From assembly GCA_947464275.1 (NCBI GenBank), contig CANHVU010000010.1, positions 1 to 64,000 on the forward strand: a stretch of DNA of 64,000 nt, given 5' to 3'. Origin of the DNA: Bacteroidota bacterium. Lineage in GTDB: Bacteria > Bacteroidota > Bacteroidia > UKL13-3. The notes under the pieces are model-generated. The model did no database searches. It was not told the DNA's origin and was given only the letters and a program-made list of their open reading frames with translations. The translations under genes and the position numbers were made by a program. Shown here in pieces: positions 19,515 to 23,616 of the stretch (positions within the stretch are counted from its first letter, which is position 1; the number at the start of each line of letters is the position of its first letter).

Positions 19515-19555
19515 AAACTGCCCCCAAATAGTGTCTAACTTTTTGGGGGCAGTTT
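19515..19555 (+). terminator. Strong terminator after the murA-redoxin pair
   Basis: AAACTGCCCCCAAA (19515-19528) and TTTGGGGGCAGTTT (19542-19555) form a perfect 14-bp stem. Confidence 0.85.
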
Positions 19556-19581
19556 ATTATTGTAGCTTTTTTTGTTTAAAA

Positions 19582-19652
19582 ATTATCTACCTCTCCCCTA
19601 CCAAATGTCCGCTCTTCAAGCATCGTTAATAAACATTTCGTCACCATCTTTT
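19582..19652 (-). pseudogene. Duplicated fragment of the M13 peptidase 3' end
   Basis: These 71 bp match 21549-21619, the last codons and the region after the stop of the intact M13 peptidase gene, with only three differences. Read on the minus strand the fragment encodes DGDEMFINDA, then a premature TGA where the intact gene has GGA, then RADIW and the same TAG. It is a recent partial duplication that is not under selection. Faint similarity (TGCTCA, TGGCGAGT) may continue to about 19680. Confidence 0.85.
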
Positions 19653-19662
19653 CAATGCTCAT

Positions 19663-19902
19663 TTGATATTGGCGAGTACGCCAACATTGGCTAAAAACGA
19701 GTTATTATTAAGCTTGCCTACCAATGCCAACTATTTGGTAGAAATAATTGACCTATTAGGTAAAACCCAAATAAATAGCATAATTAATAACAGTGGTGCA
19801 CAAATAAATACTAGCACCTTAACCAATGGTATATACATAGTAAAAATTAAAGATAATAATGGTACTATTGTGCTAACTAATAAACTATTAATAGAAAAAT
19901 AA
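19663..19902 (+). pseudogene. Orphan T9SS C-terminal sorting-domain remnant
   Basis: Seventy-nine codons hold only the end of a type-A T9SS sorting domain: YLVEIIDLLGKTQ, TLTNGIYIVKIKDNNG and the terminal NKLLIEK. There is no signal peptide or passenger. It resembles at protein level the last 65 residues of the intact protein encoded next to it (VEIIDMLSKT, NLTNGFYSVNL, NKLLIAK). Together with the M13 fragment immediately upstream it marks a rearranged or partly deleted duplicate. Confidence 0.75.
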
Positions 19903-19924: not shown

Positions 19925-20026
19925 AAATACTTTTCGAATGAACAAACTAAAATGGATATTATTATTAACTAGCCTTGCTTGTATGGTAAGTAAATTATAT
20001 AGCCAATGTTCGTTCGAAAAGTATTT
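19925..20026. repeat. 19-bp inverted repeat bracketing a start codon and signal peptide
   Basis: AAATACTTTTCGAATGAAC at 19925-19943 and its complement at 20008-20026 (18 of 19 identical) flank a 64-bp segment. The left arm contains the ATG of the T9SS protein gene; the right arm encodes the first mature residues (SFEKYF). In mRNA the start codon would lie within a 19-bp stem. Inversion of the segment would put an in-frame stop after ATG AAC. Confidence 0.75.
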
Positions 20027-21365
20027 TCCTTATACCAATACTTTAAATGGCAATATTTACAAAACATCCGATAATTATTTAATAGTAGCTGCTGACGGAA
20101 CAACAGATAGTAATGATCCTAGAAATGGGCAAATAGATTGTATTGCAATAAAAATGGATACCTGCGGGAATATAATTTGGCAGGATACTTACGGGCATCC
20201 AGTAGAAACTGATGAAATGAGTGGAGGTTTTACTGAAACAGATAATGAGGATTATATTTTTATAGGCAATGCTGCATTTCAGGCAAAAGAAGGCATTAAT
20301 ATTAGGTTTTACAAAACCAATAAAGATGGCAAAATGCTCAGCAATAAATTATACAATAAATATACAGCAGGGGCTAGGTTAGTAGTGAAAAATGGCTTTA
20401 AAAAAAATTCGTTTTTTGTTGGTGGTTTTGTCACAAATGGAGGATTTAGCAATACAGAACCTTATTTAATGGAGATAGATGAAAATGGAAACATAATAAG
20501 AGATAAAGTATTTTATTTTCCTGTGTATTCCGAAAGCAAATATTTAAGAAAAATATTACAACTCAATAATAATTCCATGTACGTATTTATGCAATTAAAT
20601 TACGACTCATTGGTGGTAGCTAATATTGATAGTAATTTTAATGTAAGATGGGTTAAAATACCCGCATCAGATACCATTCAAAATATTAAAAGCTATAACG
20701 ATGCTTGCTTTAGTTATGATAGTACTAGTATAGCTGTATTAGGTTCGTTTTTCGAATTCCGTAACCCTAACATATTTATAAGAGATAATTGGGTTAGTTA
20801 TGTAAAAACCGATTTAAATTTAAACTATCAAAAAGTAAACGGAGTAAAACAGGAGGATATGTATGGCGGATATTTGTTTATAAGGCCAACACCAGAAAAT
20901 GGCTATATAGTAAGTAATAGTAGAATAGATAGCAATTTAAATTTAACAAAAATTGACACATTCTATACTTTAGATGGTGAGCAAATATTTGATTATTGGA
21001 TTCCAAATGGTAATAAATCATTCTATGGGTTTGCCCGTGGCGCAAGGCCTACAGACCCATTTACAATAATTTTAGTAGCCAAAACCGACCAAGATGGAAG
21101 GGTAAATATAATAAAACCCAAACCCACCTTACCATTAAAAATATACCCTAACCCCGCTAAAGATATACTAAACATAGAAATAAGCGAAGAAGGAAAAACC
21201 TATACAGTTGAAATAATAGATATGCTTAGTAAAACCATACTTACCCGACAAATAGCAGGTACCAGTACCTTAAATATAGAAAACCTTACCAATGGTTTTT
21301 ACAGTGTAAACCTAACAGATAATACCGGTAAAGTAAGCGTAAATAAATTATTAATAGCTAAGTAA
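19938..21365 (+). CDS. Secreted protein with type-A T9SS sorting domain
   Basis: The 475-residue protein has a signal peptide (residues 1-22, ending SKLYSQ) and a passenger of repeated beta-propeller-like strands (IKMDTCGNIIWQDTYGH, YKTNKDGKMLSNKLY, MEIDENGNIIRDKVF), a pattern common in exported proteins whose repeats read D-x-x-G-N-I-x-W. The last 80 residues are a T9SS type-A domain: LPLKIYPNPAKDILNIEIS to NKLLIAK. It should be exported by the type IX system and either released or anchored. Its initiation region is held in the inverted repeat at 19925-20026. Function of the passenger is unknown. Confidence 0.85.
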   Translation: MNKLKWILLLTSLACMVSKLYSQCSFEKYFPYTNTLNGNIYKTSDNYLIVAADGTTDSNDPRNGQIDCIAIKMDTCGNIIWQDTYGHPVETDEMSGGFTETDNEDYIFIGNAAFQAKEGINIRFYKTNKDGKMLSNKLYNKYTAGARLVVKNGFKKNSFFVGGFVTNGGFSNTEPYLMEIDENGNIIRDKVFYFPVYSESKYLRKILQLNNNSMYVFMQLNYDSLVVANIDSNFNVRWVKIPASDTIQNIKSYNDACFSYDSTSIAVLGSFFEFRNPNIFIRDNWVSYVKTDLNLNYQKVNGVKQEDMYGGYLFIRPTPENGYIVSNSRIDSNLNLTKIDTFYTLDGEQIFDYWIPNGNKSFYGFARGARPTDPFTIILVAKTDQDGRVNIIKPKPTLPLKIYPNPAKDILNIEISEEGKTYTVEIIDMLSKTILTRQIAGTSTLNIENLTNGFYSVNLTDNTGKVSVNKLLIAK

Positions 21366-21540: not shown

Positions 21541-21564
21541 TATTACTTATTATCTACCTCTCCC

Positions 21565-23616
21565 CTACCAAATATCAGCTCTTCCAGCATCGTTAATAAA
21601 CATTTCGTCACCATCTTTTACTTTAAATGCCTCGTAAAAAGTAGGCATATTGCTCAATGGGCCTTTTACCCTAAATTCTCCTGGCGAGTGCGTATCGGTT
21701 AGTATTAACTGGCGAATAGCTTCTGGTCTTGCATTGTTTTTCCATAATTGCGCAAAACCAATAAAAAAACGTTGTTCAGGTGTAAAACCATCTTTCACTA
21801 CGTTTTCTTCAGGATGTTGTTTTAAGTATAATTTAAATGCATCGTATGCTATGCTTAAACCTCCTAAATCGGCAATGTTTTCGCCTAATGTAAGTTTACC
21901 ATTTACATATAAACTATCGCCTACTTTAAATTTGTTAAACTGCTCCACCAATACGTTGGTTCTGGCTTCAAATTGTTTTCTGTCGTTTTCTGTCCACCAA
22001 CTATTTAAGTTTCCGTTTGCATCGTATTTGCTTCCTTGGTCATCAAAACCATGTGTAATCTCATGGCCAATTACAGCACCAATAGCACCATAGTTTAAAG
22101 CAGCATCGGCATTTTCATCAAAAAATGGTGATTGTAAAATAGCTGCTGGAAACACAATTTCGTTATTAATTGGGTTATAGTAAGCATTTACTGTTTGTGG
22201 TAACATGCCCCACTCTGTCTTATCAATTGGTTTGCCCAAACGGTTAATCATTTCATTGTAATCAAACTCATTGGCAGCAAGTACATTTTCAAAATAGCTA
22301 GAATTGGTAATATTTAAAGCAGTGTAATCAGTCCATTTATCAGGATAACCAAACTTGCGCGAAATGCTTAATAATTTGGTATTTGCTTTTTCTTTGGTTT
22401 CGGCACTCATCCAAGCCAAACCTTTTAAACGAACAGCAAAAGCATCCGAAATATTAGAAACCATGGTATTTACTTGTGTTTTAGCATTTGGACTAAATGT
22501 TTGTTTTACGAATAACTGTCCTAACATTTCGCCCACACCACCATTACAAGCCGCAATGGCTTTTTTCCATAAAGGTTTTTGCTCCTTAGTTCCACTTAAT
22601 ACAGTAGCATAAAAGCTAAACTGAATTTGCTCTAACTCTGGTGTTAGTAATGAAATGGTATTATTCATAAAACTCCAACTCATGTATGTTTTCCATTCTT
22701 CAATACTGTATTTGGTCAGCAAATCGTTAAGGTTTTTGAAAAATTTAGGTTGTCCTACAATCAATTTATCGAACGAAGCAATGCCTGTTTTAGCAATATA
22801 ATTTTTTAATGGAACCGCGCTAATCTCAGTATAAAGTTCGTTTAATACATATTTGTTGTATTGTTTATCAGGGTCGCGTCTTTCTAATCTATTTAAACTA
22901 CCTGAAGCTAAATCGGTTTCTATTTTTAGAATCAATTGTGCATCTCGCACTTGTGTAATTGTATCTTTACCATAAACTTTTAAAACCTTAGTAATATAGT
23001 TCATGTACTCATTTCTAATTTTTACCGATTTTTCATCCGTTTTAAAGTAAAAATCTTTATCAGGCAAACCTAGTCCGCCTTGTGATAAATAGGGAATATA
23101 AACTTGGCTATTTTTGGCATCTTGCGAAACACCAAATCTAAACAAAGTAGAAATTCCAACTTTGTGCATTTCGGCTGCCAGAACAAACATTTGTGTAGTA
23201 TTTGATACCAATTGTATTTTGGTTAAAAAAGGCTCAGTAACCATTAATCTATCCATTTTACGTTTATTGGTATCAACATAAAGCTTATAAAAAGTAGCAA
23301 TTTTATCTTCAATAGAACCTGCCTTGTGAGTATTTATAGCTAAATTTTCTAAAATACCACGTAAAATATCATTGTTACGCTCGGCCACAATGTTAAAATT
23401 ACCCCAACGACTTTCTGTACTAGGAACAGGATTATTTTTAAGCCAAGTTCCGTTTGCGTATTGGTAAAAATTTTGATTTGGCTTTACGCTTAAATCCATT
23501 GTAGCCTTGTCAATGGCAGGTTTTTTAGCACTTTTCTTATCCTTTTTACCATCTTGAGCCGAGGTAGTAAGGGCACAAACTGCCGATGTTAACAATAAGT
23601 AATGTTTAATTTTCAT
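21565..23616 (-). CDS. M13 family metallopeptidase (neprilysin-like, PepO type)
   Basis: The 683-residue secreted zinc endopeptidase has a signal peptide (about 1-20), a Lys-rich linker and the M13 N-terminal domain (DLSVKPNQNFYQYANGTWLKNNPVP). The catalytic half carries NAYYNPINNEIVFPAAIL, the zinc motif HEITH at 518-522, and ENIAD at 579-583 giving the third zinc ligand. The C-terminal FRVKGPLSNMPTFYEAF and the final Trp are also typical. Length is standard. It probably digests peptides in the periplasm or outside. A 71-bp piece of its 3' end is duplicated at 19582. Confidence 0.95.
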   Translation of the reverse strand: MKIKHYLLLTSAVCALTTSAQDGKKDKKSAKKPAIDKATMDLSVKPNQNFYQYANGTWLKNNPVPSTESRWGNFNIVAERNNDILRGILENLAINTHKAGSIEDKIATFYKLYVDTNKRKMDRLMVTEPFLTKIQLVSNTTQMFVLAAEMHKVGISTLFRFGVSQDAKNSQVYIPYLSQGGLGLPDKDFYFKTDEKSVKIRNEYMNYITKVLKVYGKDTITQVRDAQLILKIETDLASGSLNRLERRDPDKQYNKYVLNELYTEISAVPLKNYIAKTGIASFDKLIVGQPKFFKNLNDLLTKYSIEEWKTYMSWSFMNNTISLLTPELEQIQFSFYATVLSGTKEQKPLWKKAIAACNGGVGEMLGQLFVKQTFSPNAKTQVNTMVSNISDAFAVRLKGLAWMSAETKEKANTKLLSISRKFGYPDKWTDYTALNITNSSYFENVLAANEFDYNEMINRLGKPIDKTEWGMLPQTVNAYYNPINNEIVFPAAILQSPFFDENADAALNYGAIGAVIGHEITHGFDDQGSKYDANGNLNSWWTENDRKQFEARTNVLVEQFNKFKVGDSLYVNGKLTLGENIADLGGLSIAYDAFKLYLKQHPEENVVKDGFTPEQRFFIGFAQLWKNNARPEAIRQLILTDTHSPGEFRVKGPLSNMPTFYEAFKVKDGDEMFINDAGRADIW

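What the first reader, a model, noticed from the sequence alone, without database searches (positions are those of the whole stretch)
19925..20026. 19-bp inverted repeat around the start codon and signal peptide of a T9SS protein
Arms of 18/19 identity flank 64 bp holding nearly all of the signal peptide; the left arm includes the ATG. Two models: the mRNA hairpin hides the start codon (translational switch), or the segment inverts (phase variation) and puts a TAG 13 codons into the inverted sequence, silencing a surface protein. Chance is unlikely at this length and spacing.
Basis: partly seen in the sequence, partly recalled or inferred. Interest (0 to 1): 0.6.

Follow-up and report, generated by a model that had tools for sequence, protein, structure and literature searches.

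The report
Conserved hairpin burying a start codon
The start codon of one secreted Bacteroidota protein lies in a 20-base-pair RNA hairpin that pairs it with codons just past the signal peptide, and a related species keeps the same hairpin through paired mutations, so it probably controls how this protein is translated rather than being a DNA flip switch.

Summary
Arms 19925-19944 and 20007-20026 (20 nt, 19/20 Watson-Crick, 62 nt apart) flank the signal-peptide codons of a T9SS-sorted protein (19938-21365), with the ATG in the left arm. In the mRNA all 20 positions pair, because the one mismatch is U.G. Length alone is weak evidence (about 0.05 expected per genome). The decisive point is that the only close homologue found (64% aa, dS about 1.1, same genus) keeps the stem and the 62-nt loop with a perfect helix. 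Only 3 of 40 arm bases differ: one compensatory G-C to A-U change and one U.G to U-A change, both reachable through sense-strand G.U. A covariance model finds the hairpin only at this gene. The AUG is predicted open until transcription reaches about +75, then paired (unpaired probability 0.001). Best reading: a cis-acting translational brake of the internal-complementary-sequence kind. Inversion is not supported (same orientation in both species, private arms, no serine recombinase, no recombinase on the contig), but without reads it cannot be excluded. Template-switch maintenance without function is the main rival. Effect on translation is inferred, not shown.

The parts
19925..19944 (+). Left arm of the hairpin: 13 nt of 5' untranslated sequence plus ATG AAC A (start codon inside the stem)
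   Evidence: 19/20 identical to the G005 homologue
19938..19940 (+). ATG start codon, pairs 14-16 of the stem
   Evidence: predicted unpaired probability 0.001
19945..20006 (+). 62-nt loop encoding most of the signal peptide; same length in the G005 homologue
20007..20026 (+). Right arm of the hairpin = codons C24-S-F-E-K-Y-F30; both differences from G005 are synonymous and keep pairing
19938..21365 (+). 475-aa secreted protein with N-terminal signal peptide, low-confidence beta-propeller-like part and C-terminal T9SS type A sorting domain
   Evidence: dN/dS 0.25 against G005
21141..21356 (+). T9SS C-terminal sorting domain (Por_Secre_tail, residues 402-473)
19689..19902 (+). Orphan relic of a second T9SS sorting domain (5' part of its gene missing), also directly upstream in G005
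   Evidence: L024 4025-4324 (-)
19515..19555 (.). Terminator-like hairpin of the preceding redoxin-like gene, separating it from the hairpin gene

Best explanation
The inverted repeat is a cis-acting mRNA hairpin that limits translation initiation of a T9SS surface or secreted protein. Once the transcript extends past about +80, codons 24-30 pair with the last 13 nt of the leader, the AUG and codon 2 in an uninterrupted 20-bp stem, so a free 30S subunit cannot reach the AUG. Initiation is then possible only (a) on nascent mRNA before the right arm is made, after which ribosomes in transit keep the right arm single-stranded, or (b) when a ribosome arriving from upstream opens the stem. Shown: repeat, complementarity, uniqueness, conservation with one compensatory change. 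Computed only: AUG burial and its co-transcriptional timing. Inferred: that translation is repressed in the cell, and how the block is relieved.
For: A 20/20-paired stem on the sense strand. The same stem and loop length are kept in the G005 homologue (64% aa identity, dS about 1.1, dN/dS 0.25) with a G-C/A-U double change and a U.G/U-A change and no broken pair. Twelve of 13 non-coding left-arm bases are identical, although the sequence just upstream is gapped and pS is 0.585. If the 13 left-arm sites drifted freely, full pairing would survive with P = 0.017 at 33% divergence and 0.0002 at 58.5%. In the window, pairing is stronger on the sense strand than on the antisense (-24.6 against -20.6 kcal/mol). 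AUG accessibility is 0.001 against a sample median of 0.40, open (0.68-0.81) until +75, closed at +80. In Flavobacterium johnsoniae, a Bacteroidota model lacking Shine-Dalgarno sites, initiation is tuned by secondary structure around -20 to +20 (PMC6847099).
Against: Only two orthologous sequences exist in the searched sets, so covariation rests on one double change; with two rows, half of the shuffles reach the same score. No expression data. No canonical TAnnTTTG promoter within 450 bp upstream in either species, so even transcription is unproven. The 27%-identical homologue in G016 does not show a comparable stem. The relief signal is unknown.
Confidence: 0.52

Rival explanations
1. Quasi-palindrome mutation: a replication template switch copied the reverse complement of codons 24-30 in front of the gene, and later template switches keep the arms matched. 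The hairpin has little or no regulatory function.
For: Template switching can create perfect stems in one event and produce apparent compensatory changes (PMC8794818). The right arm is coding sequence that a distant homologue shares as C-[ST]-F-E, so the left arm could be the derived copy.
Against: It predicts no constraint on pairing for translation, yet the stem survives near-saturation of synonymous sites. The surviving window mismatch is a U.G on the sense strand, which template-switch repair would tend to erase. A stem burying an AUG should be harmful if it is not tolerated or useful.
Confidence: 0.2
2. Invertible DNA segment (intragenic inverton): a site-specific recombinase flips the 62-bp interior and switches the protein off.
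For: Perfect or near-perfect arms in both species; inversion gives early stops in both. Within-gene inversions are known in Bacteroidales (cited in PMC12632263).
Against: Same orientation in both assemblies. Arms not shared with other loci. No PF00239 recombinase in the genome; PF00589 proteins only on contigs C5, C9, C18 and C23, with a sub-threshold hit on C63. A 62-bp interval is short for known invertases (own knowledge). The arms changed in concert between species rather than being kept as a fixed recognition site.
Confidence: 0.13
3. Coupling element from a former operon: ribosomes finishing the upstream T9SS gene opened the stem and let this gene be translated; now that the upstream gene is a relic, the hairpin is a leftover lock.
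For: In both species a T9SS sorting domain in the same orientation ends just upstream: stop codon 20 nt before the ATG in G005 and 35 nt in the window. Coupling through a stem that hides the downstream start is known (PMC6728339).
Against: Here the 3' arm is in the gene's own coding region, not in the upstream gene. The upstream frame has no clear start in the window, and its stop lies 22 nt before the stem, so a terminating ribosome would barely reach it.
Confidence: 0.1
4. Chance repeat inherited by two related species.
For: About 0.05 such helices are expected per genome; the N-terminal region as a whole is somewhat better conserved than the gene average.
Against: Survival of all 20 pairs at this divergence has P of about 0.02 to 0.0002 if unconstrained.
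Confidence: 0.05

Closest known systems
E. coli gnd internal complementary sequence (ICS)
   Same: A coding-region segment pairs with the gene's own initiation region and blocks initiation (reference 13 in PMC6728339; details from own knowledge).
   Different: gnd pairs a ribosome-binding site with distant codons; here no Shine-Dalgarno site is evident, the arm is 62 nt away, starts at the signal-peptide boundary, and the helix is 20 uninterrupted pairs in a T9SS cargo gene.
E. coli rpoH RNA thermometer
   Same: Initiation region paired with coding sequence (PMC4166951).
   Different: rpoH is a complex structure opened by heat; this single long stem is predicted to persist even at 55-65 C, so it is not a plausible thermometer.
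Upstream-translation-dependent initiation (atpHA, rplJL, infC-rpmI-rplT)
   Same: A stem over the downstream start that ribosomes must open (PMC6728339).
   Different: There the partner lies in the upstream ORF; here in the gene's own ORF.
Intragenic and promoter invertons of Bacteroidales
   Same: Inverted repeats of about 20 bp around a short segment at a surface-protein gene.
   Different: No second orientation, no linked recombinase, no sister sites found; very short interior.

Membership tests
Cis-acting start-codon-sequestering element (internal complementary sequence type) | Initiation region pairs with a downstream coding segment | tested here: met
   20-bp stem includes -13 to +7 and codons 24-30; MFE and centroid agree; computed, not probed
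Cis-acting start-codon-sequestering element (internal complementary sequence type) | Pairing conserved by compensatory change | tested here: met
   One double change, one U.G/U-A change, none broken; but only two sequences
Cis-acting start-codon-sequestering element (internal complementary sequence type) | Pairing lowers translation | not testable with these tools
   Needs a reporter or ribosome profiling
Invertible DNA segment (inverton) | Inverted repeats flanking a segment | tested here: met
Invertible DNA segment (inverton) | Both orientations occur | tested here: inconclusive
   One orientation in two separate assemblies; no reads
Invertible DNA segment (inverton) | Linked recombinase or sister sites | tested here: not met
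   No PF00239 in the genome, PF00589 only on other contigs, arms unique; a trans-acting enzyme remains possible
MITE or other multi-copy inverted-repeat element | Several copies in the genome | tested here: not met
   Arm and hairpin model hit only this locus
Known Rfam regulatory RNA | Match above gathering score | tested here: not met
   No family at or above gathering; weak sub-threshold hits only, none over the hairpin
RNA thermometer | Stem melts in the physiological range | tested here: not met
   Stem still formed at 55-65 C in silico
T9SS type A cargo (the gene itself) | Signal peptide plus Por_Secre_tail domain | tested here: met
   TIGR04183 39.5 bits (cut-off 23); PF18962 51.2 bits (cut-off 27); signal peptide judged by eye

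The most novel reading that the evidence does not exclude
A 'nascent-transcript-only' initiation lock: because the AUG closes once about 80 nt of coding sequence have been transcribed, each mRNA can be loaded only during a short window of transcription or while ribosome traffic holds the right arm open. Output would then depend on ribosome supply and on coupling of translation to transcription, in a phylum that initiates without Shine-Dalgarno pairing, with the lock placed at the signal-peptide boundary of a secreted protein.
Probability: 0.15. Interest if true: 0.6.

Novelty: new variant of a known kind. Interest (0 to 1): 0.4.

Why it matters
Bacteroidota initiate translation without Shine-Dalgarno pairing, so start-site accessibility should matter more than usual; a conserved stem that buries an AUG is a clean natural test of that idea and of how a T9SS cargo gene could be held down after transcription. 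It also shows that an inverted repeat at a Bacteroidota surface-protein gene should be tested for sense-RNA covariation before it is called an inverton.

Tried and rejected
Dispersed repeat or MITE: arm and covariance model have no other hits beyond chance. Covariation with more homologues: only G005 has a close homologue among 64 family or order genomes and a 395-genome class sample; genome contigs gave the same one, plasmids none. Shared structure in the distant homologue G016: only a 9-bp complementarity (CTCAAAAGT / ACTTTTGAG) at the matching codons, not in its predicted fold, no excess over shuffles. A general class of start-spanning hairpins in the genome: next best helix 15 bp, which the Markov null explains. 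Known RNA family: none. Thermometer: too stable. Direct repeat 19582-19652 / 21549-21619 as a target-site duplication: rejected, because G003 carries the same degenerate peptidase-tail relic with a different gene next to it, so it is an older relic. The protein fold model is low-confidence (mean pLDDT 50) and its PDB matches, many of them propellers, are taken only as a hint.

Full report
Observation. The inverted repeat is real: 19925-19944 and 20007-20026, 20 nt, one mismatch, 62 nt apart. The left arm spans the last 13 leader bases and ATG AAC A (start codon, codon 2 and the first base of codon 3). The right arm is codons 24-30 (CSFEKYF) of a 475-aa protein with a signal peptide and a T9SS type A sorting domain. 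The single DNA mismatch (T of the ATG against G of the Ser codon) is a U.G pair in mRNA, so the sense RNA folds as 20 consecutive pairs, duplex -24.6 kcal/mol.

Chance. Within the window it is the only repeat of this length with a loop over 10 nt (the others of 17 nt or more are terminator-like). Among 316 ORFs in 451 kb of the same genome it has the longest start-spanning helix (20; next 15, then 13). A Markov null gives 1.7e-5 per start, based on one of 60,000 trials, so about 0.05 per genome if there are roughly 3000 genes. Length alone is thus suggestive only.

Comparison. The gene is rare. Of 64 genomes of the family (also all that is held of the order), only G005, same genus, has a close homologue; two others have homologues of 27-28% identity; a class sample of 395 adds none. 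G005's contig matches the MAG contig CAIUQQ010000267 (uncultured Bacteroidetes). Its homologue is 64% identical in protein, with dN/dS 0.25 and dS about 1.1, so the protein is under selection and synonymous sites are near saturation. In G005 the arms are AAATACTTTTCAAATGAACA / TGTTCATTTGAAAAGTATTT: perfect, one pair longer outward, same 62-nt loop. Three arm bases differ. The pair G12-C9 is A12-T9 in G005 (both sides changed), and the U.G at the AUG's U is U-A. Both right-arm changes are synonymous. No pair is broken in either species. Both differences can be bridged through a G.U on the sense strand: the window left arm still pairs at 20 of 20 with the G005 right arm. On the antisense strand the window has a broken pair and weaker duplex. 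This points to sense RNA, not DNA, as the level at which pairing is kept. With only two sequences this is one compensatory event, and the shuffle control has no power.

Persistence. If the 13 non-coding left-arm sites drifted freely, all 20 pairs would survive with probability 0.017 at the regional divergence (33%) and 0.0002 at the synonymous divergence (58.5%). Something therefore keeps the arms matched: either selection, or recurrent template-switch repair, which is a known way to create and maintain stems (PMC8794818). The retained U.G in the window is mildly against repair.

Mechanism. Predicted AUG accessibility is 0.001 in both species, against a sample median of 0.40 (third lowest of 316). 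When growing transcripts are folded, the window AUG stays open (0.68-0.81) until about +75 and shuts at +80; G005 behaves the same but less sharply, 0.35 by +70. In F. johnsoniae, which lacks Shine-Dalgarno sites, initiation is tuned by structure in the -20 to +20 region (PMC6847099). The simplest reading is a cis-acting brake: initiation on nascent mRNA or under ribosome traffic, closed otherwise. What opens it is unknown. Heat is unlikely. Coupling to an upstream gene was perhaps the original setting, because a T9SS sorting-domain relic in the same orientation ends 20 nt (G005) or 35 nt (window) before the ATG. I found no TAnnTTTG promoter motif within 450 bp upstream in either, so expression itself is unproven.

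Inversion model. Inversion would give stops at codon 15 (window) or 16 (G005). However, both assemblies have the same orientation, the arms are unique in the genome (control-level hits elsewhere), no serine recombinase was found in the genome, and tyrosine recombinases are unlinked. I rate it 0.13; reads would settle it.

Kind and novelty. Functionally it resembles the internal complementary sequence of E. coli gnd and other stems that hide a start codon (PMC6728339; PMC4166951), without an evident Shine-Dalgarno site and with an unusually long, uninterrupted helix that begins its 3' arm at the signal-peptide boundary. No Rfam family matches. I call it a new variant of a known kind, with function inferred and not shown.

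Noticed in passing
window 19689-19902 and L024 4025-4324 (-): Orphan T9SS sorting-domain relic directly upstream of the hairpin gene in both species, although the wider neighbourhoods differ; relic and gene seem to have moved as one unit.
   Followed up: partly
window 19553-19697 and 21549-21619; L043 5265-5406 and 6316-6410: A degenerate copy of the 3' end of the M13-like peptidase gene (21565-23616, minus) lies left of the T9SS gene. G003 has the same relic next to the same peptidase but a different gene (L043 5471-6223) in between, so this is a slot whose content differs between relatives.
   Followed up: partly
G005:C249:10077-12131 (L035): The G005 homologue of the M13-like peptidase carries one in-frame TAA according to the search table; assembly error or pseudogene.
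   Followed up: no
L061 11345-11484, L064 11764-11917, L061 1189-1507, L050 1127-1451: Palindromic repeats (GGTTGGTGTTTTCACCAACC and CCGATAGCTATCGG types) recur in the sampled genome, resembling REP-like elements.
   Followed up: no
G029:C1:266959-268340: A 27%-identical homologue of the hairpin gene is split over two frames with an in-frame TAA (probable pseudogene or frameshift).
   Followed up: no
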